IMG/VR virus record: IMGVR_UViG_3300043426_000266
Coordinates: 141,064-205,063 of that record
Strand: one strand, 5' to 3'
Origin: a virus
Length of the DNA stretch: 64,000 bases
Position 1 is the first letter of the stretch. Each line of letters begins with the position of its first letter. This document shows, piece after piece, positions 13,525 through 62,732 of the stretch. A program made the position numbers and the translations under genes. The notes below the pieces were generated by a model that was given only the letters and a program-made list of their open reading frames with translations, had not been told where the DNA came from and did no database searches.

Positions 13525-15681
13525 ATGACTGCAACTCCAAGACCTTTTATTTTTGATAAATTTGAATACCAGCGGGATGGTGATCCATTAGCACATTGGA
13601 TTAAAGCTCAAACTGATTATATCACAAAGTTATACGGCTACGATCGAGATTATGTTGAGCGTTGGGTGAGAGACTCGATCAAAGAGGGTGGTGCTTCTCC
13701 GTTCTTTGATCGCAAAGTCCAGTTAATACAACAAACTTCTCCTGGAAATAGAGAAGTGCAAGTAACTTCTTTTTATGCTTATCAGAAAACAGCACAAAAA
13801 GAAGGGTATGTATTATCCCCATCTCAAACTGCGTATAAAGATCCAGTTGAAAACCCATCCATTATGGCGAAGTTTACAGACTTTAACGCAAAGCTTCGTT
13901 CAAAATATAAAAAGACAGCACAAGATGCTAAGGTAAAGAAACAAACCGCAATCGCTGAAGAAAATGGTGTACTCCAGCTGAACACAAAAGAGTTAAACAA
14001 CTCATTCTCAGGTGCGAACTCATCATGGTACAACGCTCTTTGTAATGCATCTGGCCATCAGGCATTAACCTCAACTTGTCGCTCTGCTACGTCGTATGCA
14101 AACATTATTTGCGAGCGATTCTTAATGGGTAATCGAGTTTACGTTAATGTGGATATTGTTATTCAGGAATTATCAAATGCGTGTTTACTAGCAGACCATG
14201 ATTCTATTTGGAAAATAGTTAATGAGTACAACTTAAAAGTTCCAACGGCAGATGACGTGTATTCGACGGCTGAAAAATCTTTCTCTAAGTATTTCCGCTC
14301 AAGAGAAAAAACGGCAGACATTAAATTGTTTATTTCAACAATGGACGATGTATCTCGCTGCGCATTTGTTTATCTGGGGGATTTGTATCATCTAGATAAG
14401 TTAAATCCGTGGTTCGTAGAAAATCTATTCAAAGAACTTAGTGAGTTTACCAAGGAGAACACTGAACCAACCGATGATCTCTACTCAACTGCTTCTGACG
14501 ACATGCGTACTTTAGTATTCTCGTTGCTCAAGGATATGACCAAGGGTAAAGTTTATAAAGACTTTACAACGGCAGAAGATCCTACTGGCAAATCAATTAT
14601 TAATAACACCATCAAATCGTATTACTCGTTTTTCAATAAGTACGAGAAATTTATTAATGCGTTGTGGAGACCTACTTACTTACCTTCTGGTATGGCGTAT
14701 CTACGAACAATGTTACGAGAGGTTATTTTAACTTCTGATACTGACTCGGCAATTGGAACCACGCAGCATTGGACAAAGAGAATAACCGGGTCTTATAATT
14801 TCGAACCTGAATCATTTATGGTTTGCTTTAATTTAATTTATTTCATTTCAGAATCTGTCGCTAACGCCTTTGGTAAACTTTGTGCGAACATGGGTGTGCC
14901 TGGTGAACTGATTGATCAGCTCGGAGCAAAGAACGAATACTACTTCCCAATTTATACACTAACAGAAGCAATGAAACATTATTTCTGTTGGAAGATGTTG
15001 GAAGAAGGTCGAGTACTTCCCGAACTTGATTTAGAAAAGAAAGGGGTTGGTTTCATTAGTGCTAGATACGCGGCTAAAATTCAGACTGAGTTAGATGAGT
15101 ATATTGAAAAAGACATCTTAACCAATGTAATGCAGAATATACACTTAACTAAGGAGCAGGTGCTCGCAAGACCATTGGCGTTAGAAGAGGAGATACGAAA
15201 CTTAATTCGTTCAGGTGGGATTATTTATCAAACAGACAACATTAAAAGTGCAGAGTCTTATAAAACAAATACAAGTAATGCGACCTACCGCCAGTATCTT
15301 TTATGGCAAGAGGTCTTTGCACCTACTTACGGCATGGTTGATGAGCCCCCGTATTCAGCGTATAAAGTCCCAGTCGCTATCGAGAAAAAACGGCATATTA
15401 AAGCTTGGATCGAAAAGATCCAAGATAGAACATTAGCAGGCAGACTTCAAGCATTTTTAGATAAACACGGCGTAGAACAAATGTCCTCAATTCTCGTTCC
15501 AACCCAGCTTGCTGAGCAGATCGGGATCCCACGAGAAATTGTTGAAATCGCTGATGAAATGAGAGCAACCTCTCAAATCATGCAGCCATTCTATTTAGTG
15601 TTGCAAGGTCTTGGGTTTCTCTATACAAACCATAGTCAAACAAAATTAATCAGTGACTATCGCTTTATAGAAGAGCGGTAA
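13525..15681 (+). CDS. DNA polymerase family B, C-terminal half (fingers, palm motif C, thumb)
   Basis: Motif C is visible as LTSDTDSAIG, with the catalytic acids at Asp405 and Asp407. Motif B is visible at about residues 153-185 (NTKELNNSFSGANSSWYNAL), the K-x-x-x-N-S fingers motif in divergent form. The remaining ~300 residues would form the thumb. There is no exonuclease domain and no motif A here; both are in the separate minus-strand gene at 43961-45691, which stops about 85 residues after motif A. The two proteins must assemble to make an active polymerase. Starts after GAGGTG at 718 residues. The 3' end overlaps the convergent gene at 15665 by 17 bases. High confidence in the family, based on motif order. 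Confidence 0.85.
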   Translation: MTATPRPFIFDKFEYQRDGDPLAHWIKAQTDYITKLYGYDRDYVERWVRDSIKEGGASPFFDRKVQLIQQTSPGNREVQVTSFYAYQKTAQKEGYVLSPSQTAYKDPVENPSIMAKFTDFNAKLRSKYKKTAQDAKVKKQTAIAEENGVLQLNTKELNNSFSGANSSWYNALCNASGHQALTSTCRSATSYANIICERFLMGNRVYVNVDIVIQELSNACLLADHDSIWKIVNEYNLKVPTADDVYSTAEKSFSKYFRSREKTADIKLFISTMDDVSRCAFVYLGDLYHLDKLNPWFVENLFKELSEFTKENTEPTDDLYSTASDDMRTLVFSLLKDMTKGKVYKDFTTAEDPTGKSIINNTIKSYYSFFNKYEKFINALWRPTYLPSGMAYLRTMLREVILTSDTDSAIGTTQHWTKRITGSYNFEPESFMVCFNLIYFISESVANAFGKLCANMGVPGELIDQLGAKNEYYFPIYTLTEAMKHYFCWKMLEEGRVLPELDLEKKGVGFISARYAAKIQTELDEYIEKDILTNVMQNIHLTKEQVLARPLALEEEIRNLIRSGGIIYQTDNIKSAESYKTNTSNATYRQYLLWQEVFAPTYGMVDEPPYSAYKVPVAIEKKRHIKAWIEKIQDRTLAGRLQAFLDKHGVEQMSSILVPTQLAEQIGIPREIVEIADEMRATSQIMQPFYLVLQGLGFLYTNHSQTKLISDYRFIEER

Positions 15682-16910: not shown

Positions 16911-16969
16911 GTGAACGAGACTAATTAATGTCTTTTCATTAACAATTGTTATCAAGCAAGGATATATCC

Positions 16970-18835
16970 ATGACAAGTTTAAAAATCGGTAATCAAAATC
17001 AAGAAACAACTCAAAACCAAACTAACGATCGCGGTCATGGTGGCGACCGCCGTGAGTCTCGTCGTGAGTCTCGCCGCAAAAATGCAGACGACACGTTCGT
17101 AAGTTTAGTAGAATTGCTTCGCCCAGAAGCAGCTGGCAAAGCAATGCAACCCCGTGCTGAAAATGCACTTAAATGGGTGCAAGCTTCACTTGCTCGTGAT
17201 CCTGAAATTATTAAAGGCCATGAAGTTCGCATCACTTCAATTTCTCGTGAAAAAGGATACCCAGTTAAATATCCTGGTATCGTCATCACTTTGTTTAACC
17301 CATCAACAAATCGTATCGCTTCACATACCTTGATGTTAGAAGATGGCGAAACATTACAACCATTAGAAAACCGTACTTTCCGCGGCGAAAATATTACCCC
17401 AGAACCAGTACCTTCAATGGTGTGGGATTCTGAATACCAACAAGCGGTTCGCACAGAAGTGTACGAGCTTTATAAAGACGTGGCTGATGTGAAATATGCA
17501 TCAATGGGTGTGACTGTAGTTCCACACACACTGTCTATCCCAATTATCACTGAACATACCAGTCAAGACATTAACCCGTTAGATGCGCAGTTTGTTGCAA
17601 TTGTAGAAAGCTTGTCAAGTTTCTACAAATGGTTAGGTCGTGATGCAAGTCGTGTTAAACTAGGTGAAGCATTCAACCCTGACCGTGAACAGCTGGTTGC
17701 AAACGTTGACCAAGCACCAACCATTGAGTTTGATCAAATGGGTCAACCACGTCGTTCAGACTTCTGTATTTCGTTGTCTGTGAAAAAGCGCCGTGATGAA
17801 AAACGCGACGTTGGTCCGCTGTCTTATAACCGCGATGACCAAGTTGATTCCGGTACTATTCTTCGTGTATCAGGTTATTGCTTGCCTTACTACACTCAAC
17901 CAAACCTCGATGATAAAAAACCACGTAACTTCGGTATCAATATCATCGTAACTGCAATTGAAGGTAAATCAACACCGTCGTTAGAATTGTTCCTTTACGG
18001 TATGGCTTCAACAACTGTATTGACCAACAACGACATGTGGGCGGATGGTTTCAAACCAGCATTGATCGTTGCAGACCCAATGCGTAACCTTGGTGGCCTG
18101 TTCCTTGAGATCCCTGATCAAAATGGTGAATCAATGCCGCGTCGTGACTACGCTGCGAGTTCATCTAATGAATTCTTAGATGACGTAGATTTCTTGTTCA
18201 GCTCTGATGTTACTGTGTCGTTAGATTGTTCTGAATCTGGTGCGACTGCCTGGATTACAGATTTGTTCTTGAACAACGATCTTGACGCAATTGAAGAAGC
18301 TGCTGACAACTTGACCAACGAAGAATATAGCGCCATCGTGAACAACGATGTGAATGATGCAATTGTTCGTAGTGATACTCGTCGTTTCTATACTGGTGAA
18401 TACAGCGGTGCACATTCTGTACGTGATATTCGTGATGTTGATTATTTATATCTTATCAACAAATTCGATGAAAACGGTTCCGCAGAAGCTGCAAAAGACT
18501 GGGATGAATCTTTGGGTGATGATAGCGAGTATGGTTTACACCAACGTGCGGTATTGACTCAAGAAGCACTTGGTCACGGCACTTATCGTATCACTGGTGT
18601 GGTTGACCGTGTGAAACTTGATGCTTCATTCTTTGAAGCAGTTGTGAATGCGTTACATAACACTGACATGCTTCCTAACACCAATGATATTTCTCGTGGC
18701 TTCCGTCCTAAACAGCGTCTTGAAGCGAAAAATGTTAAAGGTCGTATGGACAGCCAAGAGCTTGGTTCAAACTATCGCACCAACCATAGTCGCCAGGTTA
18801 ATCGTCAACGTAATGCATTTCGTGATCGCGGTTAA
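16970..18835 (+). CDS. chmA: Probable chimallin, phage-nucleus shell protein
   Basis: Chimallin self-assembles into the single-layer protein shell that encloses replicating jumbo-phage DNA. Three points support the call. The length, 621 residues from the ATG at 16970 (AAGGA eight bases upstream), is close to the ~630 of known chimallins. Charged low-complexity tails flank a folded core: a Gln/Asn/Arg-rich N-terminus (about 8-32, with repeated RRES) and a basic C-terminus (NRQRNAFRDRG). The next gene encodes an RNA polymerase beta' N-terminal part, matching the phiKZ gp54-gp55 order. The strongly biased codon use (CGT, GGT), own promoter and UUCG terminator suit a very abundant protein. I cannot align it to a reference here; another abundant structural protein remains possible. 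Confidence 0.7.
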   Translation: MTSLKIGNQNQETTQNQTNDRGHGGDRRESRRESRRKNADDTFVSLVELLRPEAAGKAMQPRAENALKWVQASLARDPEIIKGHEVRITSISREKGYPVKYPGIVITLFNPSTNRIASHTLMLEDGETLQPLENRTFRGENITPEPVPSMVWDSEYQQAVRTEVYELYKDVADVKYASMGVTVVPHTLSIPIITEHTSQDINPLDAQFVAIVESLSSFYKWLGRDASRVKLGEAFNPDREQLVANVDQAPTIEFDQMGQPRRSDFCISLSVKKRRDEKRDVGPLSYNRDDQVDSGTILRVSGYCLPYYTQPNLDDKKPRNFGINIIVTAIEGKSTPSLELFLYGMASTTVLTNNDMWADGFKPALIVADPMRNLGGLFLEIPDQNGESMPRRDYAASSSNEFLDDVDFLFSSDVTVSLDCSESGATAWITDLFLNNDLDAIEEAADNLTNEEYSAIVNNDVNDAIVRSDTRRFYTGEYSGAHSVRDIRDVDYLYLINKFDENGSAEAAKDWDESLGDDSEYGLHQRAVLTQEALGHGTYRITGVVDRVKLDASFFEAVVNALHNTDMLPNTNDISRGFRPKQRLEAKNVKGRMDSQELGSNYRTNHSRQVNRQRNAFRDRG

Positions 18836-37986: not shown

Positions 37987-39267
37987 TTACGTCAAATGAA
38001 TTTTAGGATTGAATTCAGCAATTTTAAATGAACGACCATGCATTGCTTTCATGGCGTTGTTCATGATAATGGATCCAGGAAGAGAGGTTTCGATATGCAC
38101 CATTTCTCTTGAAGTAAAGAAGAAAGTATCTGTGCAGTGACCACAGAAGTTCGGTGGCTTCGTTTTACATCTCGCTGGAGTTCGTACGGTAATCGTTTTA
38201 TTGATTAATGATTTTGCCAACTCCGGAGTAATCTCGTTGGTTTTACCTGACACAGGATCAACGGTATATCGACCATAATAACGCTTCATATTATCTTGAG
38301 TCAATAAAACATTTACACCAGTCTTTACCCCACAGTCATCTTCTGAAATCTTTGAGTTCATGAAGATACGATATAGATAGTTTACTAGTTCACCGCCCTG
38401 CGCGGTTAAATGTCCACGAGAGTATGACGCTGCGCGAGTTGTATCGGCATTCGCTGGGATATTTTTAACGTCCATCCCGTCAGATAGTGGTTTGGTAATG
38501 ATCGCGGGTTTACCCCCGCCGAGACCATCGTCTAACCCGTACATTACGTGTGCTTTTTTTCTAGAATTTTCAAAAGACTTATCTGAAACAAAGAAGTCCT
38601 CCGCAACATCCCCCTTGAAAGAGTTCTTATCCATTGCAACAAGTTCTTTTTCAATTTCAGCAATCACCACGGTATTATCAAGTTCCGCTGCGTGCTTCTT
38701 CAACAACTCATCCCGACGGATTTCTACTGATTTATCAATAGACATTGTTTTGGCAGAACCAGTTGGAGTCGACACTGCCCATAACCCATTGAGCATGTTT
38801 AGACATTCACACCAGTAGTAGAATTCTGCAGCAGTGATTCTTTTCTCTTTAATGAACTGCTCAACAACTGAATTAATATCAGATGGTTTAAGTTTTTTGT
38901 TTAGATAAGGAGCTTTATCCCCAAATGCAGCAATAAGACAAATTAAATTACCTAGGATTGTTCCACCCGTACTCATTGTTACTTCGTGGATGTTTGGTAA
39001 ATCCCCAGGGTTTAAAGTATAAGTGGTTTTATAATCAATAATACTTTCTAATGGTTTAACTCCGTCTATCTTTTCAAACGCATTTGTTTCGGAGTTCCAA
39101 AACATGTGCTGGCCAGTATCACGGTCAATGGCGATATCAAAACCAATCCAGTCACGTATCTCATCACTGAAGGGGTGGGTAGCAACAGTAAAGACGCACA
39201 GCAACCAACGGGTCTCTTTATATCGATTTGCTTTCACACCACCTAAGAAAAAATTAAAACGATCCAT
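37987..39267 (-). CDS. Second RNA polymerase beta' C-terminal part, probable virion RNAP
   Basis: A second, divergent beta' C-terminal fragment. KPLSDGMDVKNIPANADTTR matches the segment before the bridge helix; RAASYSRGHLTAQGGELVNY corresponds to the bridge helix and T-A-N-S-G-Y-L-T-R-R. KISEDDCGVKTGV matches V-T-E-D-D-C-G-T. FCGHCTDTFF is the C-A-H-C-Y-G site, and IIMNNAMKAMHGRSF the trigger-loop start. The protein stops at the trigger loop, about 30 residues after the zinc-like site. It lies on the opposite strand from the non-virion genes, and position and size recall phiKZ gp80, a virion RNAP subunit. AGGAGA precedes the ATG. It overlaps its upstream neighbour by 14 bases. Confidence 0.88.
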   Translation of the reverse strand: MDRFNFFLGGVKANRYKETRWLLCVFTVATHPFSDEIRDWIGFDIAIDRDTGQHMFWNSETNAFEKIDGVKPLESIIDYKTTYTLNPGDLPNIHEVTMSTGGTILGNLICLIAAFGDKAPYLNKKLKPSDINSVVEQFIKEKRITAAEFYYWCECLNMLNGLWAVSTPTGSAKTMSIDKSVEIRRDELLKKHAAELDNTVVIAEIEKELVAMDKNSFKGDVAEDFFVSDKSFENSRKKAHVMYGLDDGLGGGKPAIITKPLSDGMDVKNIPANADTTRAASYSRGHLTAQGGELVNYLYRIFMNSKISEDDCGVKTGVNVLLTQDNMKRYYGRYTVDPVSGKTNEITPELAKSLINKTITVRTPARCKTKPPNFCGHCTDTFFFTSREMVHIETSLPGSIIMNNAMKAMHGRSFKIAEFNPKIHLT

Positions 39268-40111
39268 TAATCTTCTCCTGGATACAGATGTTATTAATTT
39301 GATAACTTAATTCTGCTAAATACATTGGGTCTTCGCCGTATAGGTCTTTAGCAAGTGAATTCACTTTTGTTTTTAAATCTTTCCATTCAGTTTTACCAAT
39401 CAAAGCAATTTCAACCAACTTCCAAGCAACCCGGTTCTTAGTTGTTCCTGATTTTAATGATTTTAACATATCTCTAAAGTTGGACATGATAACAATATCA
39501 CTAATTGGTAAATTTAATTCATCGTTATAAACAAAGTGTTTAACAGTGTTAATTTGTTTAAGACCCCAAATTCTAAACAACAGTTCTTTTTTACGACTAT
39601 CAATTTCTGGAACTGTAATCAAACCTTCTGATTGCATTACACGCATCGGACTAAAATGGATATTGTAAATACGTTCGATAAACTCGGTGGGGATACGTTC
39701 AACAATATCTTCGAATTGAATTAAGTCGGCGTAACAAACTTTTTCTATTAGGTCTAAAAAACCGTCTAAAGGTGTTTCAGCATTATCTAAAAGTTCAGTA
39801 ATTAAAACATGTTCATCCGATTCTTCAATCACTGATAAATAGCTTAACAACGCATTTGAGGTTGCAATGTTATCGCAGTTGATTTGAATACCAAGTTCTT
39901 CAAAAATTAACTTCTGATATTGGCGAATGTGACCGTAGCATGTTTGAATAACTTCAAACGTGTCATTGTTTTCTAACAACATCCCTAGCTCATTTAAGTT
40001 AAGTTCAATATCCACCATTCCAAAATTTTGAATCGTGTGAATTGAATCATTAATTAAAGCCTGTTGTTCTACCGTGCACGTATCAGTTAAGAATTGTTGG
40101 ATAATGTCCAT
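39254..40111 (-). CDS. Unknown phage protein, 285 aa
   Basis: First gene of the three-gene minus operon that contains the second beta' C-terminal subunit, with GAGG before the ATG at 40111. Acidic and wholly helical in appearance, no motif recognised. Overlap with the RNAP gene by 14 bases implies coupled translation and perhaps physical association, but that is inference. Confidence 0.75.
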   Translation of the reverse strand: MDIIQQFLTDTCTVEQQALINDSIHTIQNFGMVDIELNLNELGMLLENNDTFEVIQTCYGHIRQYQKLIFEELGIQINCDNIATSNALLSYLSVIEESDEHVLITELLDNAETPLDGFLDLIEKVCYADLIQFEDIVERIPTEFIERIYNIHFSPMRVMQSEGLITVPEIDSRKKELLFRIWGLKQINTVKHFVYNDELNLPISDIVIMSNFRDMLKSLKSGTTKNRVAWKLVEIALIGKTEWKDLKTKVNSLAKDLYGEDPMYLAELSYQINNICIQEKINGSF

Positions 40112-40721: not shown

Positions 40722-43017
40722 TCTTTCAATTATTATTTCCCCATTGGCGGATGCTGAAAAAGTAAAAACCGAATTGCAAGAACTGTTAGTTGGTAAATCA
40801 GTAGTGATCTCTGATGACCCATTTGCAATTGGTGATGTCGTCATTACTCAATATTTCTCTGACTTGTCAAAACATTTATCGGGTCATGTTTTAGATACAC
40901 TCCTAGAGCGTAAAGATTTATTGGTACAAACACACACCCAGGTAAGTGTAGGTGAACATATTGGTTCGTTGATGAATGATGAGAACTCAGACACAGCAGC
41001 AATATCTAGAATTTCAACCAATGCGTTTTCAGCAATTGCGTTTGCAAATCAAATTGCAAAACTAAATGAAAAGTTTATTATCACAACATCAGTTGATCAT
41101 AGTTTTGGTGAAGAGATGGCATTTTCTGATTGGTTGAACCGCCAACCGCAAGTTCAAGAGACTGTGACCACAGAAGTTAAGATTGAGCCAGAGGCGCCTG
41201 CTGCTGAAGTTGCTACTTCTGCAGAAACAGTCGTACCTGCGGTAGTGGAAACAGATCCAGTCCCTGTTGACGATAAGACTGAAATCGCCGGTGATGGTCT
41301 TGGATCAACCGATACCGCCCCTGTGGTTGATGAAGCGTTTTTAGACCCACTTTCAAATGTGATCAGCGCAACGACTGACCCCCAACCAATTGTCTTGGAA
41401 GAAATTTCCGTCAATGAGGTCTCTGAAACTGATACTTCAACTGCTGTAGAGGAAGCTGCTCCTCTGGTCGAACTAAACTCTGATATGGATTCCTTTGATC
41501 CGTTAGCACAAGCATTCGCAACTTCTTCTCAATTAGCAAACGAGGAGGAACCCAAACCAGAGCCTGATTTAGATGCGTCAATTTACATCGGTCGTTTACC
41601 AGACTATCCAAAAGTCGAAACAACAGTTGAAATTTTAAAACACCCATTGGTGAAAAAAGCTAAAGACGAACCATCAAGTGAAGCAATGTTTTACGACTGG
41701 GGTGGTGACGTGGATTCGCTTACATCTGAGTTAGAAAGACTTGATCGAATGTCTGAGGAAGCAACTCAACGTAAACGTCGCCCCAACTTCACAGAACAAG
41801 ACATGCAGACGCTGGCATGTATGAGTGATCGAATTGGGTCTAGAGACATAATGAACCGAATGTTTACACCCCAGTCTAAATGGTCACAAGCGCTTCGCAC
41901 AGAGACAAAAGCAATTCCGCTACTCACTGTAGTTAAAAACCCAAACTATGGCGATCAGCGCTATGTGGGTACTGATGCAGTACCGTTGCTTGCTAACCGT
42001 ATGAAAATTGGTGTAACAATTGGTGTAATGCTACCACATACTGGTATTTACGTTTTAATTGTTTCACCAGGAGATGATGAAGTATTAAACACGCTGTCCA
42101 TCATCAATGCACAACGTGTTGAAACCCTACGCTCTTCTTCTGGGATCTTATTAGGTAATAGTAATTACTATCTAAATAAACAAATCATTGACTTGTTCTT
42201 AAATAGCGTAACAGATTGTTCTTTAACCGCACATAATCGTGAAATGCTGCAAAAGCTAATTGATGATCGTGATGTTGATATTATCGCTGCTGCGCTGTAT
42301 GCATCTATCTATCCAGATGGCTACGACTATACACAGGTTTGCGGGTTAGAACTTGCCAATCATCCAGGTAAAATTTGCCCGGGTAGTCAAGAGTTTGTTG
42401 CTGATTTAAAACGTATGGTGTTTGTAGACAATTCACGTTTAAATGAATATCAACGTAACATCGCAACAGCTGGATTAACCAAACGTTCAGTTAAAGAAAT
42501 TGAAGACTATCAAAGTCAACATTATCTTGGTTGGGAAAAACCATACGAGATTACTGAAGGTGTTCAATTCATTTATAAACCAGTGTCTTCTTTGGTTGCA
42601 ATTGAAGCAGGTGAAAAATGGATTAGTGAAATCTCTAGCGTCGTTGACCGTTTGATTGCGTTTAAACAAGATGAAACTGAACGGAATGTGATGATCAACC
42701 AACGAATCGATATTACGCGTATTCGTGAGTTTAGTCATTGGGTATCTGAGATTCATGTTGACGGGTTGATTCTTAAAGACCGTGATAAAATTGATCAGTT
42801 GTTAAATAAACTGAGTCGTAATCCAGAGGTTGTGAACAAAGTAGGTGAAACCCTATCCGAGTTCCAACGTTTATCTGTTATTGCAATGGTGGCTATTCCA
42901 CGCGTGGAATGTCCGACTTGTTCTCAGACTGATCAGAAGGATTTAGATATTAGCCCTTATTTAATTCCACAAGATGCAGTCTCTCGTTTTTTTACCCTCG
43001 CCCACCAAAGATTCTAA
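40714..43017 (+). CDS. Probable tail/baseplate assembly protein, 767 aa (short form)
   Basis: Residues 1 to about 150 are folded. A low-complexity Glu/Val/Thr/Pro-rich linker spans about 150-290. A folded C-terminal region follows, containing Cys-rich sites (VCGLELANHPGKICPG near 548-563; VECPTCSQT near 730) that could bind zinc. The later region (MKIGVTIGVMLPHTGIYVLIVSPGDDEVL and the CPTC site) reminds me of T4-type baseplate-hub assembly chaperones, but the match is weak. The reading frame ends 22 bases after seven consecutive T (42987-42993) where the -1 frame continues open for 172 codons; see the extension feature. Confidence 0.65.
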   Translation: MSNLSIIISPLADAEKVKTELQELLVGKSVVISDDPFAIGDVVITQYFSDLSKHLSGHVLDTLLERKDLLVQTHTQVSVGEHIGSLMNDENSDTAAISRISTNAFSAIAFANQIAKLNEKFIITTSVDHSFGEEMAFSDWLNRQPQVQETVTTEVKIEPEAPAAEVATSAETVVPAVVETDPVPVDDKTEIAGDGLGSTDTAPVVDEAFLDPLSNVISATTDPQPIVLEEISVNEVSETDTSTAVEEAAPLVELNSDMDSFDPLAQAFATSSQLANEEEPKPEPDLDASIYIGRLPDYPKVETTVEILKHPLVKKAKDEPSSEAMFYDWGGDVDSLTSELERLDRMSEEATQRKRRPNFTEQDMQTLACMSDRIGSRDIMNRMFTPQSKWSQALRTETKAIPLLTVVKNPNYGDQRYVGTDAVPLLANRMKIGVTIGVMLPHTGIYVLIVSPGDDEVLNTLSIINAQRVETLRSSSGILLGNSNYYLNKQIIDLFLNSVTDCSLTAHNREMLQKLIDDRDVDIIAAALYASIYPDGYDYTQVCGLELANHPGKICPGSQEFVADLKRMVFVDNSRLNEYQRNIATAGLTKRSVKEIEDYQSQHYLGWEKPYEITEGVQFIYKPVSSLVAIEAGEKWISEISSVVDRLIAFKQDETERNVMINQRIDITRIREFSHWVSEIHVDGLILKDRDKIDQLLNKLSRNPEVVNKVGETLSEFQRLSVIAMVAIPRVECPTCSQTDQKDLDISPYLIPQDAVSRFFTLAHQRF
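42987..42993 (+). promoter_or_regulatory. Candidate -1 ribosomal slippery site TTTTTTT
   Basis: Zero-frame codons around it are CGT TTT TTT ACC, giving the pattern X-XXY-YYZ with all T. The zero-frame stop is at 43015. A GAAGAGTTC / GAACTCTTC hairpin starts 32 bases downstream, further than the usual 5-9, so its role in stimulating the slip is doubtful. Confidence 0.5.
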
Positions 43018-43960: not shown

Positions 43961-45691
43961 TCAATTAACGGTTATTTCCTGATACATCTTAGCGGGTAGT
44001 TTGTGCGCGGCAGCAAAGTCTTTATGAAGATCTTGTAATGTTTTTAATTTGTACAAGTCTCGACACGTCGTAATTGCATTTGCATACCCCCCGGTCAGAT
44101 TCACACAAACATAACGGTGTTGGAATGAATCAATCCCTTGTATCTTACATATCTCAAATACCGTGTTTCTTCGACACAACCCCAGCAAGATACCGATCTT
44201 AGGATAAGCTGATATCAAATCCAGGTCGTAGTTATGAATCGTTGTTCTAGATTTTAAGAACGTTTTATCATCTTTAACTAATTGGATTCCTATATCTTCA
44301 AGATGAGTCGCCTCTAGAATATTAATCCAAAGTTCCTTACCAATAACCATCTTGTCAATCTCTTCCTTCATTCGATCAGAAGTTGTAGACATAACCTGGT
44401 CATTCTCTAGGCAGAAAGTATGCAAGGCATCACATAGTTTTCTAGGGTTAGAGTTAAAGTCTTTAATTTGAGAATTACCCAACAACAAAGGTAACTTGGT
44501 GCTGATGTCTTTAAACTTCTCATCGAACTCCTCTACGCGAATACAGTCAATCAAACCATAAGCACAGTATTCCTTTTTAAAGTGTTTCTGCATCACCATG
44601 TGCCATCTCCCAGTACCCGTAGGGATGCCTTTTAATAACTCATGTTCTACGTGATATTTACCTTGACCCAGATACTTCGTTGTTAAGTAGTCTAATGAAT
44701 AAGAAGGCTCTGCTTTCATTTTACGAAGACCGCGAAATAAGGAAGCAGGGTCAATAAAGTAAAATGGTGAAGTGGAATATACTGTATGCCATTGTTCCGA
44801 TACTGCCAGGGGTCTAGAAGTACCATCATCTTTACGTTTCACTAATGGTCCTCGTTTGAATTCAAAATGTTTGAATTCAGGAGGAACAGAGGAATGAGAG
44901 AAAATGTCTTTAGGATCAACATTAGCATCCCTGAGGATATCTAATATTACACTCATATCGTAGTTGATGTTCCAAAAACCAATAACGTCAGGCATCCATT
45001 CATTGGCTTTCTCGTACATCTTTTTAATTCCATCAACCATATTGTTAACGAAATCTAATTCTAGTTTAATCTTTCTATCTTTTATTTCTGGCAACTCATC
45101 TTCAATAAACTTACGATATTCTTCAGCAGTGTCTCCAGGATTAACCCACTTGTTTAAAACAACCTGATAAGCTTTGTCTTTAAAACTCATGCTAAAGATA
45201 ATCATCCCAAGATTACCATTCATGTCAAATTCAGTATCTTGAACCGCGACAGTTAAACGGCTACGGGTACTGCGTTTGAATTTCTTTTCGTATTGAAGCT
45301 TAACAACAGAGTTAATGTCAATATCACAACCGTATACAAACGGGCTACGAAAGCACTCTGCTAATCGCATTTGCGGGGTGTAGGGTTTACTAAGTTTGTA
45401 CTGGACTTGACGAATCAGGTCACGTTGAGTTGTTTTGTAATTGATTAAGTTCTGTAGGTATTCTGTCTCTAATTTGTATTGATGTTTTTGATGCGCTTTT
45501 TTTGTAATCCAAAAATCACGTTTAACGTTCTCATGGAACACATACTCAGGGGTACACCCGTCAGTACCATCTGCGTTTTTAACAAAACGATTACGTTTAA
45601 CAAATACAGCGTCCCCCTCATGGGATTTATTATTAATTGCGTAGCATGAATGAATATATTCAAATTCAGGATTATTAACATCGGTACTCAT
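43961..45691 (-). CDS. DNA polymerase family B, N-terminal half (exonuclease and motif A)
   Basis: The 3'-5' exonuclease motifs are all present: Exo I QDTEFDMNG (Asp152, Glu154), Exo II NINYDM (Asp245) and Exo III YGLIDCIRVEEF (Asp382). Polymerase motif A follows as DLISAYPKIG (Asp491), matching D-x-x-S-L-Y-P-S-I. The protein ends at residue 576, 85 residues after motif A, with no motif B or C; those are in the gene at 13525-15681, about 28 kb away on the other strand. The start at 45691 follows GGAGG by eight bases; an in-frame TTG at 45706 lacks a site. It is the only gene in its transcription unit. Confidence 0.9.
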   Translation of the reverse strand: MSTDVNNPEFEYIHSCYAINNKSHEGDAVFVKRNRFVKNADGTDGCTPEYVFHENVKRDFWITKKAHQKHQYKLETEYLQNLINYKTTQRDLIRQVQYKLSKPYTPQMRLAECFRSPFVYGCDIDINSVVKLQYEKKFKRSTRSRLTVAVQDTEFDMNGNLGMIIFSMSFKDKAYQVVLNKWVNPGDTAEEYRKFIEDELPEIKDRKIKLELDFVNNMVDGIKKMYEKANEWMPDVIGFWNINYDMSVILDILRDANVDPKDIFSHSSVPPEFKHFEFKRGPLVKRKDDGTSRPLAVSEQWHTVYSTSPFYFIDPASLFRGLRKMKAEPSYSLDYLTTKYLGQGKYHVEHELLKGIPTGTGRWHMVMQKHFKKEYCAYGLIDCIRVEEFDEKFKDISTKLPLLLGNSQIKDFNSNPRKLCDALHTFCLENDQVMSTTSDRMKEEIDKMVIGKELWINILEATHLEDIGIQLVKDDKTFLKSRTTIHNYDLDLISAYPKIGILLGLCRRNTVFEICKIQGIDSFQHRYVCVNLTGGYANAITTCRDLYKLKTLQDLHKDFAAAHKLPAKMYQEITVN

Positions 45692-58345: not shown

Positions 58346-59737
58346 ATGAGCGCATTTCAATACGCATTAGAATCAGCTGACAACGCTGAGTTCAACGAAG
58401 CACCACTAGCTAATGGTGAAGAAACACATACTGTCGCAAATGCAATTGCAGAAGCACAGGACCTTGCACAAGAAGCAGCAGATGCAGATAAAGTTGCTGA
58501 GGATCTTGAAGATGAACAAGAACAAGCCGAAGACCTTGCAGGCGAAGTAGAAGATACTGTTGCTCAAGAAGGTGCGTTAGATCCAACCGCAGCTCGTATT
58601 TTAAAAGTTGCGTTTGCTAATATCGTTGGTAAGCGTCATGCTGGTAAAGTATTGCCTGCAACTGAAAACTTCGAAGGTGGTCGTCAAGCTGGTCGCGAAT
58701 CAACCCGTATTGCTTTAGAAGGTATCAAAGATACTTTGAAAGCTTTCTGGGAAGCAATCAAAGCCCAGTTCAAAAAAGTTTATGCAAAAGTTAAAGACTG
58801 GATGGTTAAAACTTTCTCTGCTGCTAAAAAACTTCAAGCTCGTGCCGAAGCGCTTCAAAACAAAGCAAGTTCTACTGTAGGTTCTATCGAAGAGAAAAGC
58901 TTTAGCTTTAGCCAAACCAAAACAATTGCTGTAGACGGTAAATACAATGAACCTGGCAAGTTAACATCAGGTTTGAACAACCTTCGCCAAGTGGTTGTGG
59001 GCACAATCACTGAGTTGAAAAAAGACACAGTTGATACAGCTATTGATAATACTGTAACTGCTATCAAAGATGCATTTACAGGTGCTGGTAGTAATAGTCG
59101 TAAACTGGAGCCAACGAAAGTAGAAGCTCTAAAGACTGCTGTTAAATCAGCTATTAAAGGTGCGACTGCTGGGAAAATCCCTGGTTCGGTTGGTGACACT
59201 AAAAAATATGCTGATCAGTTTGGTGATTCAGCTGAAGTGGATGTAACTGGTGTATTTGATTTACCAGGTGGTAAAGCGATCATCGTTGTTGAACCTAAAG
59301 GTCAGCCTATCAACTTAGATGCAGCTGTGAAGACACTAAAAGGCGCCAAACTCGTACTGGCTTCTGATCGCTACAACCTTCGTGAAGTATCTGAAGGTGA
59401 CGTCAAAACGTTAACGACTTCTCAAATTGATAAAGTGTGTGATGACGTAATTGAAATCGCTGAATCAGTTCATACTTTCGAGAAGAACTGGAAAGAAAAC
59501 GACAAGTTGGTTGAGAAAATCCAACGTGAAGTTGACGACCTTGTTAAAGAATACGATCAAGAAGACGGAACCAAAGACAACGAGCAACGTATCTTCCGTA
59601 ACTTCTGTAACTCAGCAGTTGGTGCTATCCGTCGCAGCAGCCAGTTCAAAGCAAATCTTTGTCAGTATGGTTTAACTACTGGTAATGCGTTCTTGAACTA
59701 CGCAGAGCGTTCTTTAGCTCAGCATAAATCTAAGTAA
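58346..59737 (+). CDS. Internal head (inner-body) protein, paralog 1, 463 aa
   Basis: One of three paralogs (58346, 59826, 61317). An acidic, Ala/Glu-rich leader (about 1-75) is followed by candidate prohead-protease sites VAQEGA, PATENFE and IALEGIK (near 124-130). After the last site comes a strongly basic helix (LKAFWEAIKAQFKKVYAKVKDW), then a folded domain. This is the design of phiKZ gp93/gp95-type proteins: the leader is removed at A-x-E and the basic mature part stays in the head with the DNA. Long stretches are near-identical in DNA to 61317, showing recent duplication or gene conversion. GAAGGAAAC precedes the start. Terminator follows. Confidence 0.8.
   Translation: MSAFQYALESADNAEFNEAPLANGEETHTVANAIAEAQDLAQEAADADKVAEDLEDEQEQAEDLAGEVEDTVAQEGALDPTAARILKVAFANIVGKRHAGKVLPATENFEGGRQAGRESTRIALEGIKDTLKAFWEAIKAQFKKVYAKVKDWMVKTFSAAKKLQARAEALQNKASSTVGSIEEKSFSFSQTKTIAVDGKYNEPGKLTSGLNNLRQVVVGTITELKKDTVDTAIDNTVTAIKDAFTGAGSNSRKLEPTKVEALKTAVKSAIKGATAGKIPGSVGDTKKYADQFGDSAEVDVTGVFDLPGGKAIIVVEPKGQPINLDAAVKTLKGAKLVLASDRYNLREVSEGDVKTLTTSQIDKVCDDVIEIAESVHTFEKNWKENDKLVEKIQREVDDLVKEYDQEDGTKDNEQRIFRNFCNSAVGAIRRSSQFKANLCQYGLTTGNAFLNYAERSLAQHKSK
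58709..58755 (+). repeat. 47-bp block identical to 61662-61708
   Basis: An exact repeat spanning the I-A-L-E cleavage site and the start of the basic helix in paralogs 1 and 3. Two more long shared blocks occur at about 58884-58917 (GSIEEKSFSFSQT) and 59393-59459 (EGDVKTLTTSQIDKVCDD), matched at about 61838-61871 and 62380-62446. Confidence 0.85.
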
Positions 59738-59750
59738 TTAGGTTTTGATT

Positions 59751-59780
59751 AGAAAGACCCCAGTGGGGTCTTTCTTTTAT
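59751..59780 (+). terminator. Rho-independent terminator
   Basis: Stem AGAAAGACCCC / GGGGTCTTTCT with a three-base loop, followed by TTT. Ends the first inner-body paralog. Confidence 0.85.
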
Positions 59781-59825
59781 GCAGCTATTTAATGTTTTCT
59801 TATGAAGATTAATCGGAGACAAGTA

Positions 59826-61259
59826 ATGTCTGAATTTAGTAAATTGATTGAAAATGCTGATGAAGATGTTAAGCACATCGTTTTCACAGAAAATAAAACA
59901 AACGATATTCAATCCTTAGATAACTCTCATACTGAGGCAGAGATTGCTCGTGACCATTTGGATGAGATTGAAGAACGTAATGCTGTAACGATTGAGTTAT
60001 TAAAAGATGTTGATGTGGCGACTGAATCTCGTGATCTAACTCCAGCCGAATTTAATATCTTAAAAACTTCTCTTCGCGCAATTACCAATTCTCGAGTTTT
60101 AAAAGACGTTGCAATGGAATCAAGTGAAGGTGCTAATCTTCGGCCAATTGCGATGGAGGGAATTAAAGATACTTTGAAAAAGTTCTGGGTTTTCATTAAA
60201 GAACAAGTGAAAAAGTTTTGGACAATGTTAAAACAATGGTGGATTAAATGTTTTGATATTTCTAAACGTTTAAAAAAACGCGCTGATAACCTAATTAAAG
60301 AAGCGGATGATCAATATGGTTCGGCGTCTGAAAACACAATGGACTTTCCAGAAATTAGCAAACTAGCAATTGCAGGTAAATATAACGACCCTACCGCGAT
60401 TGTACACGGGTTAAAAAGTTTAGAAGATATTACGGCTGACTTTATTAATGATAATACTTCTGAACGGTTTAATGAAACTGTTGAAGAGTTGTCAGATAAA
60501 ACAACCCGAGTAATTGAAAACATCTACTCAGAGGCAAAGGATGTTCTAAGTCAAGTACCCGATCAACGTATCGAAAGAGATCGTATCTATATCTCTAAAG
60601 ATGACATCACTTCAATTAAAACAACCTTATCAAAAATCCTAACGACAGCAGACAATGATTTTATTAAAGATGCTTCTTTTGCCTCAACTGGAAATGAAGA
60701 TAAATTTAAAAAACTTCATGGGGTTGAGAGTGATAAAGATCGCTTTACACGTTCTGTGAATTTACCTGGGGATAAATGGGTACTTTCAGTACAACCGGAA
60801 TTAGCAACCTTATCAAATACGAATTTATCAAATTTACCCGATATTATTGATTATGTTCGTCGTAGTAAACTTACCATTGGTTCTTGTTTCTACAACGCTA
60901 AAAAATATGATTCAGGTTTAGAAGTTCGTGCATTAAACCCATCTTTGATTTCTAGAGGATGTGAATCAGTTTCTAAGATTTGTGAATATGTTTTTGAATA
61001 TCGTCAAGCATTTGAAAAGCGTGATAAATTTAAAGAACGTGTGATCAAAGATATTGATCGTTTAATTAATGAAGTTACTGATGAACATGAAAATGCTTAT
61101 CAAGAAGTCGATCGGACGACAAGGACCTTTGCCAATTCAATGGTTGGTCTTATCCGTCGCCGTTCTGATTTCGAAACCTCACTGTGTTCGTATGCGATAG
61201 CCACTGGTGTAGCCTTTGCTAACTATTCAGAAAAGTCTTTAAAATTATACTCTAAATAA
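59826..61259 (+). CDS. Internal head protein, paralog 2 (divergent), 477 aa
   Basis: The ATG at 59826 follows CGGAGA; an in-frame ATG at 59802 lacks a site. It has the same layout as its neighbours: an acidic leader, the A-x-E motifs DVAMESS and PIAMEGIKD (near 110 and 122), a basic helix (LKKFWVFIKEQVKKFWTML), and an alpha/beta C-terminal domain including LPGDKWVLSV and VSKICEYVFEYRQAFEKR. It is clearly more diverged than the two flanking paralogs, which are closer to each other, and its codon use is less biased. No terminator separates it from the next gene. Confidence 0.78.
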   Translation: MSEFSKLIENADEDVKHIVFTENKTNDIQSLDNSHTEAEIARDHLDEIEERNAVTIELLKDVDVATESRDLTPAEFNILKTSLRAITNSRVLKDVAMESSEGANLRPIAMEGIKDTLKKFWVFIKEQVKKFWTMLKQWWIKCFDISKRLKKRADNLIKEADDQYGSASENTMDFPEISKLAIAGKYNDPTAIVHGLKSLEDITADFINDNTSERFNETVEELSDKTTRVIENIYSEAKDVLSQVPDQRIERDRIYISKDDITSIKTTLSKILTTADNDFIKDASFASTGNEDKFKKLHGVESDKDRFTRSVNLPGDKWVLSVQPELATLSNTNLSNLPDIIDYVRRSKLTIGSCFYNAKKYDSGLEVRALNPSLISRGCESVSKICEYVFEYRQAFEKRDKFKERVIKDIDRLINEVTDEHENAYQEVDRTTRTFANSMVGLIRRRSDFETSLCSYAIATGVAFANYSEKSLKLYSK

Positions 61260-61316
61260 CACGATATTTATGAGTCATTACTAATTCTCAATTAACCCCC
61301 TATAAAGGAAATCAAC

Positions 61317-62732
61317 ATGAGTGCATTCAATAGCTACGCTGCTGAGTCAGCTGATAGCCAAAACGAAGATGTAACAGCTGTGCCAGAAGATGAAACCGCA
61401 ACTTCTGAATTAGCAGATGCGACTGCGGAACAAACTGAAGTTGCTCAGGAAGATGACATTGCTGAACAACTTGGCGAAGAGCAAGAACAAGTAGAAGATC
61501 TCGGTGAAGCAGTTGCTCAAGAGTCTGGTGGTTTAACTCCACAAGCAGCCCGTATGCTTAACTTAAGTTTACGTCGTATCGTTGGTAAAAAACACGCCAG
61601 CAAAATTATTGCAACTGAAAACTACACCAGCTCACGTTCACTTCAGCTAGAAGCTAAACAAATTGCTTTAGAAGGTATCAAAGATACTTTGAAAGCTTTC
61701 TGGGAAGCGATCAAAGCTCAGCTCAAGAAATTCTATAACAAAGTTAAAACATTCTTTGTTAAGGTTTTCTCAGCCGCCCGTAAACTTTCTGAACGTGCTA
61801 AAAAACTTCAAGATAAAGCTTCTGAAACCGTAGGCTCTATCGAAGAGAAAAGCTTTAGCTTTAGCCAAACTAAAGCCATTTCAGTCGACGGTAAGTATAA
61901 TAACCCAAGTGATTTAACTAGCGGTTTAAATGAAATTTATCAATGGATGAAAGGTAATCTTACAGTTAAAAAATCTGAAGACTATGAAAACGTCATTGAA
62001 AAAACTCAAGGTCAAATTGAAAAATCAGTTAAAGACCTTATTGATGATGTCAAAGGCGGCGGTAAGGGTTTTGGTTTAGCAAGTGGTGGCAAAACCTCAA
62101 TTAGTGCAGAACTTGATAAGGCAGGTGTTATCAAAATTACACCACTGGGTAAAATGAGTTCCCCAGACAGTAAGCTTGTTGACATGTACAAAGATAAAAC
62201 TGATAACACCGTTACAGTTGGATTCAGTAAAGGTCTACCAGGCGGTAAATCTATCGTTTCAGTTTCAGTCAGTAAACCAATGGGTGGTACTTCAATTGAG
62301 GGTTTAACCGCCGCTATCAAAGAAGTTAAGCAAACTCGTTTACTTCTTGGTAACGATAAATATACACCACGCGATGTAACTGAAGGTGACGTCAAAACAT
62401 TAACCACTTCTCAAATTGATAAAGTGTGTGATGACGTCATTGAAATTGCTGAAATTTCCTACACGTATGAAAAAGCGTGGGAGCGTCGTGATAAGTTCCA
62501 ATCTAAACTTGAACGTGAAGTTGATCAAATTGTAAAAGAAGTTGATCAAGAAGATCACGACAAAGTTGATTCAACAGTACAACGTGCCGTTCGTCAGTAT
62601 GCCGAAGCATTCACTGCATCAGTTCGTCGTCGTACAACTTTTGAATCTCAGTTCATTGGTTATGCATTGAATACCGCTTCTGCAATGTTGAACTATTCTG
62701 AACGTTCACTTGCGCAACATAAAGCTAAGTAA
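61317..62732 (+). CDS. Internal head protein, paralog 3, 471 aa
   Basis: An acidic leader (about 1-80, with repeated E/D/A) is followed by the A-x-E sites VAQESG, IATENY and IALEGIK, then the basic helix LKAFWEAIKAQLKKFYNKVK. Near-identical blocks with paralog 1 include GSIEEKSFSFSQTK and EGDVKTLTTSQIDKVCDD. The central region (about 235-300) differs and is Gly/Lys/Ser-rich. Shine-Dalgarno AAAGGA precedes the ATG. Terminator follows. Confidence 0.8.
   Translation: MSAFNSYAAESADSQNEDVTAVPEDETATSELADATAEQTEVAQEDDIAEQLGEEQEQVEDLGEAVAQESGGLTPQAARMLNLSLRRIVGKKHASKIIATENYTSSRSLQLEAKQIALEGIKDTLKAFWEAIKAQLKKFYNKVKTFFVKVFSAARKLSERAKKLQDKASETVGSIEEKSFSFSQTKAISVDGKYNNPSDLTSGLNEIYQWMKGNLTVKKSEDYENVIEKTQGQIEKSVKDLIDDVKGGGKGFGLASGGKTSISAELDKAGVIKITPLGKMSSPDSKLVDMYKDKTDNTVTVGFSKGLPGGKSIVSVSVSKPMGGTSIEGLTAAIKEVKQTRLLLGNDKYTPRDVTEGDVKTLTTSQIDKVCDDVIEIAEISYTYEKAWERRDKFQSKLEREVDQIVKEVDQEDHDKVDSTVQRAVRQYAEAFTASVRRRTTFESQFIGYALNTASAMLNYSERSLAQHKAK
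61662..61708 (+). repeat. 47-bp block identical to 58709-58755
   Basis: The second copy of the repeat, in the paralog 3 gene. No such identity is found in the diverged paralog between them. Confidence 0.85.

What the first reader, a model, noticed from the sequence alone, without database searches (positions are those of the whole stretch)
13525..15681. DNA polymerase split into two genes 28 kb apart on opposite strands
This gene has polymerase motifs B and C (SDTDSAIG) and a thumb but no exonuclease or motif A. The minus gene at 43961-45691 has Exo I-III and motif A (DLISAYPK) and stops 85 residues later. The break falls inside the palm/fingers, so the catalytic aspartates come from two different proteins. 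It parallels the split RNA polymerases of this phage group.
Basis: partly seen in the sequence, partly recalled or inferred. Interest (0 to 1): 0.8.

Follow-up and report, generated by a model that had tools for sequence, protein, structure and literature searches.

The report
PhiKZ-type two-gene DNA polymerase
This giant phage makes its DNA-copying enzyme from two separate genes whose products most likely join to form one active site; this is the normal, already described arrangement in phiKZ-like phages, and the window adds a distant new example.

Summary
[quoted passage not shown] 43961-45691 (-) encodes the Exo I-III domain plus motif A (phrog_3011, E 2e-143). Motif A Asp491 and motif C Asp405/Asp407 lie on different chains and are invariant in every homolog aligned. 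No other family A, B or C polymerase was found in the 205-kb record. The best reading is a two-chain polymerase whose metal-binding aspartates come from both chains.

It is not new. The genes are orthologs of phiKZ gp50 and gp82. Both halves, as separate genes, were present in all 45 phage records in which both were sought (27 IMG/VR records including this one, 18 isolates). Papers already list a 'split family B DNA polymerase' as a core protein of these phages. The 'opposite strands, ~28 kb apart' layout is also a family trait: 27/27 IMG/VR records have it, with gaps of 26-54 kb; phiKZ itself is an exception.

Added here: the break is placed between motif A and the fingers, the catalytic residues are shown invariant on both chains, and the layout is shown to be conserved. 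Assembly and activity are inferred, not shown.

The parts
13525..15681 (+). C-terminal half of the DNA polymerase (fingers, palm motifs B and C, KxY, thumb); ortholog of phiKZ gp50
   Evidence: PF20286 E 5.8e-189, phrog_2927 E 1.4e-189; alignments A1/A4
13897..13911 (+). fingers R125-x3-K129
   Evidence: invariant in A1 and A4; in the stretch matched by the Pol zeta and Pol delta fingers
13987..14013 (+). motif B K155-x3-N159-x3-G163
   Evidence: invariant in A1 and A4
14734..14748 (+). motif C SDTDS, D405 and D407
   Evidence: D-T-D invariant in 13/13 and 33/33 homologs
43961..45691 (-). N-terminal half of the DNA polymerase (N-terminal domain, 3'-5' exonuclease, first palm strand with motif A); ortholog of phiKZ gp82
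   Evidence: phrog_3011 E 1.8e-143; profile matches RB69 gp43 in order; Foldseek RB69 gp43 E 2.7e-14
45230..45238 (-). Exo I D152-x-E154
   Evidence: invariant in A2 and A5
44957..44971 (-). Exo II N241-x3-D245
   Evidence: invariant in A2 and A5
44546..44560 (-). Exo III Y378-x3-D382
   Evidence: invariant in A2 and A5
44201..44227 (-). motif A D489-x-D491-LISAYP (residues 489-497)
   Evidence: D489 and D491 invariant in 15/15 and 29/29; aligned to RB69 motif A

Best explanation
The two genes encode the two halves of one replicative family-B DNA polymerase of the phiKZ type. The N-half chain carries the N-terminal and proofreading exonuclease domains and the first palm strand with motif A. 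The C-half chain carries the fingers, the motif C part of the palm and the thumb. The chains associate without a peptide bond, so that Asp491 of one and Asp405/Asp407 of the other together hold the catalytic metal ions, while the exonuclease of the N chain proofreads. Shown here: gene identity, complementary content, invariance of the catalytic residues, co-occurrence in every record searched. Inferred: association, shared active site, role as the replicase.
For: Each PolB motif occurs once across the pair and none is missing. Catalytic acids are invariant across homologs only 17-38% identical. The window's own record has one copy of each half, and both halves are in 27/27 IMG/VR records and 18/18 isolates. 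No frame holds both halves. No other family A, B or C polymerase in the record. Modelled alone, the poorly formed regions include the active-site parts: motif A (485-518, pLDDT < 50) in one chain and 395-403 next to motif C (pLDDT < 50) in the other, as expected if each needs its partner. Precedent: split 43A/43B of Aeromonas phage 25 co-purify and have polymerase activity (PMC2988022). AR9 expresses both halves as continuously expressed genes (PMC5312081). [quoted passage not shown]
Against: No co-fold or biochemistry. The isolated C-half model matches RB69 gp43 only weakly (TM-score about 0.23). One paper (PMC7824862) reads the C half as a polymerase on its own and the exonuclease as a separate associated protein. 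The record may be incomplete (205 kb, no completeness estimate).
Confidence: 0.9

Rival explanations
1. The C-half chain is a complete polymerase and the minus-strand gene is a stand-alone proofreading exonuclease that merely associates with it; motif A there is a remnant.
For: This is how PMC7824862 described the group.
Against: Motif A D489/D491 are invariant in all N-half homologs aligned, including the Gram-positive phage AR9 with the canonical-looking DFDLSSLYPS; the one apparent gap, in PhiPA3, is an intron. The C half has no conserved acid upstream of motif B in alignment A4; in A1 only D75 reaches 12/13. A remnant would be expected to decay.
Confidence: 0.06
2. The halves are joined after translation, for example by a trans-splicing intein, into one chain.
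For: Inteins in PolB genes are known; phage MIJ3 has a PolB gene split around a putative split intein (PMC6892783).
Against: No room for an intein: P0002 ends 85 residues after motif A and P0001 starts with its own family-wide N terminus; the PHROG models cover nearly the whole chains.
Confidence: 0.01
3. The pair is not the replicase but an inactive relic or a repair polymerase.
For: Activity has not been shown for this phage.
Against: All catalytic residues for synthesis and proofreading are intact and conserved; no other replicase was found in the record.
Confidence: 0.03

Closest known systems
phiKZ gp50 + gp82 (split family-B DNA polymerase of phiKZ-like phages)
   Same: Orthologous halves (32-33% identity), same break between motif A and the fingers, far-apart genes
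   Different: In phiKZ both genes are on the same strand, and gp82 carries an insertion
Salmonella phage SPN3US gp18 + gp44
   Same: Same halves on opposite strands, gap about 27.5 kb, with RNAP and SbcD genes between them
   Different: 27-29% identical
Bacillus phages AR9 and PBS1, polymerase genes
   Same: Same two halves; [quoted passage not shown]
   Different: Both halves on the same strand, about 15 kb apart; 17-20% identical
T4-type gp43A/gp43B of Aeromonas phages 25 and 44RR
   Same: Family-B polymerase in two chains that co-purify and are active (PMC2988022)
   Different: The halves are separated only by an intercistronic sequence or a homing-endonuclease gene; an unrelated event
Methanothermobacter thermautotrophicus split PolB
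   Same: Archaeal family-B polymerase made of two polypeptides (PMC7776575)
   Different: Cellular and an unrelated event; its break point was not compared here

Membership tests
phiKZ-type split family-B DNA polymerase | C half belongs to PF20286 / phrog_2927 | tested here: met
   E 5.8e-189 and 1.4e-189 over nearly the whole protein
phiKZ-type split family-B DNA polymerase | N half belongs to phrog_3011, with Exo I-III and motif A | tested here: met
   E 1.8e-143; motifs invariant
phiKZ-type split family-B DNA polymerase | halves encoded by separate, distant genes, one copy each | tested here: met
phiKZ-type split family-B DNA polymerase | phiKZ-like genome context (nuclear shell protein, multisubunit RNAP, phiKZ_IP head proteins) | tested here: met
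[quoted passage not shown]
   two different chains cannot be co-folded here; no biochemistry
canonical family-B DNA polymerase (PF00136) | match to the PF00136 model | tested here: not met
   no match in the record; the relation shows only in profile and structure comparison
canonical family-B DNA polymerase (PF00136) | exonuclease and polymerase motifs on one chain | tested here: not met
   no frame holds both halves in any locus fetched
T4-type split gp43A/gp43B | neighbouring halves separated by a small inserted element | tested here: not met
   28.3 kb apart and on opposite strands

The most novel reading that the evidence does not exclude
The split is not a passive scar but a controlled assembly: separately made chains have to be imported into the phage nucleus and meet there before any replicase exists, and the conserved far-apart, opposite-strand gene layout reflects separate expression control of the two halves.
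Probability: 0.1. Interest if true: 0.6.

Novelty: new member of a known kind. Interest (0 to 1): 0.28.

Why it matters
A replicase whose catalytic metal-binding acids come from two polypeptides is unusual among DNA polymerases, and every phiKZ-like phage checked here has it. The kind is known, but published descriptions disagree (split polymerase versus polymerase plus separate exonuclease). The invariance of motif A in the exonuclease chain argues for the first and gives a simple mutational test. No relative of either half detectable from the single sequences has a solved structure.

Tried and rejected
Single-sequence scans of viral contigs found nothing, and alignment A2 had no stretch conserved enough; A1 and the smaller A3 worked. 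Profile comparison of the two halves with each other gave nothing, so one is not a duplicate of the other. Fused or near-neighbour versions were sought in all fetched loci: none. PDB searches with the single sequences gave only chance hits. The 2012 OBP genome paper and the 2011 replicase survey are not held, so what they say about the exact break point could not be read; one DOI given from memory led to an unrelated paper. Rfam found no family for the motif C inserts of phage LPJP1.

Full report
What is there. The window is the last 64 kb (141064-205063) of a 205,063-base virus record. P0001 (13525-15681, +, 718 aa) matches PF20286 'divergent Family B DNA polymerase' (E 5.8e-189) and phrog_2927 over nearly its whole length; P0002 (43961-45691, -, 576 aa) matches phrog_3011 'DNA polymerase' (E 1.8e-143). 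In the 'phages' collection 286 records match P0001 and 279 match P0002, from much the same set of phages; phiKZ gp50 and gp82 are the orthologs.

Anatomy. In 13 and 33 aligned C halves the invariant residues include R125, K129, K155, N159, G163, D405, D407, K484 and Y486. In 15 and 29 aligned N halves they include D152, E154, N241, D245, Y378, D382, D489 and D491. Upstream of motif B the C half has no acid conserved in alignment A4; in A1 only D75 reaches 12/13. So the C chain has no candidate for motif A, while the N chain has one. Profiles of the two families match solved polymerases in complementary parts: the N profile matches RB69 gp43 at 96-232, 284-381 and 406-431, the last being motif A; the C profile matches the fingers of Pol zeta and Pol delta, and RB69 705-759. 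The break therefore falls after motif A and before the fingers, inside the palm in sequence order.

Structure models. The N half folds confidently in the exonuclease part, with pLDDT below 50 at 438-459, 485-518 and 524-538, which includes motif A. The C half is confident in most parts but not at 395-403, next to motif C, where no palm hairpin is formed. Foldseek places the N half on RB69 gp43 (E 2.7e-14) and the C half on the same protein weakly (E 1.4e-4, TM about 0.23). Low confidence around the two catalytic motifs is what one expects when each chain lacks its partner; it is suggestive, not proof.

No other polymerase. The record has one match to each half and none to PF00136, PF03104, PF00476 or PF07733, with the control genomes ringing. 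Completeness of the record is not known.

Conserved layout. Both halves are present in all 27 IMG/VR records searched, this one included, and in all 18 isolates searched. In 27/27 IMG/VR records the N half is on the opposite strand, downstream of the C half, with gaps of 26-54 kb, median 37 kb; three of these need the record to be circular. Of the 14 Gram-negative isolates searched, 13 have opposite strands (EL, OBP, SPN3US, Moabite, D3 and others); phiKZ has both genes on one strand. AR9 and PBS1 have both on one strand about 15 kb apart; Staphylococcus phage PB50 also has one strand, Listeria phage LPJP1 opposite strands. No frame contains both halves, and the only loci with both are those cut wide enough to span them. 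The split therefore probably predates the divergence of the Gram-negative and Gram-positive members.

Literature. PMC5105663 states that the phiKZ 'split subunit DNA polymerase' was identified ten years after the genome was sequenced, citing Cornelissen et al. 2012. [quoted passage not shown] PMC7824862 instead describes a polymerase without exonuclease and a separate exonuclease protein. The invariance of motif A in the exonuclease chain favours the split reading. Working precedents for two-chain family-B polymerases are Aeromonas phage 25 43A/43B (PMC2988022) and M. thermautotrophicus (PMC7776575).

Verdict. Observation and interpretation are sound, but this is a new and divergent member of a known kind: its C half is 29-38% identical to the IMG/VR relatives aligned and at most about 32% to isolates. 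The mechanism (two chains, one active site) is very likely and untested here.

Noticed in passing
L003:42521-44910 (PhiPA3): PhiPA3 gene 085 is annotated as ending at '...ADLD', in the middle of motif A. A group I intron (RF00028, 42791-43096 minus, 71.7 bits) follows, and the rest of the gene (IVSTYPNV...) lies at 42521-42742: the annotation is truncated and an intron sits in the motif A codons.
   Followed up: yes
L129:73-356 (record G006); L130 and L135 (record G007): Two other IMG/VR records have the N half broken at or near the same motif A position (model position about 487); in one a group I intron is recognised.
   Followed up: partly
L024:1422-3927 (Listeria phage LPJP1) and L005:14574-16690 (Staphylococcus phage PB50): The C half is interrupted inside motif C ('LVV' | 'SDTDS', 'LTID' | 'KTDS') by about 490 and 200-300 nt; no Rfam family matched. 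The N half is in pieces in both phages as well.
   Followed up: partly
L131-L134 (records G022, G026): The N half is interrupted by about 200 nt near Exo I (model position 156/157); the type of insert is unknown.
   Followed up: no
L158:9923-12772: An N half with an extension of about 370 residues beyond the usual C terminus, of unknown function.
   Followed up: partly
window 16946-18835: Divergent nuclear shell protein (phrog_4795, E 8.5e-33), so this phage probably builds a phage nucleus.
   Followed up: no
window 37987-40111: An RNA polymerase subunit gene (phrog_2962) and its neighbour are on the minus strand, whereas what look like the corresponding genes in SPN3US, PhiPA3 and phiKZ are on plus: probable local inversion.
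   Followed up: no
window 58346-62732: Three tandem phiKZ-like internal head protein genes (PF12699).
   Followed up: no
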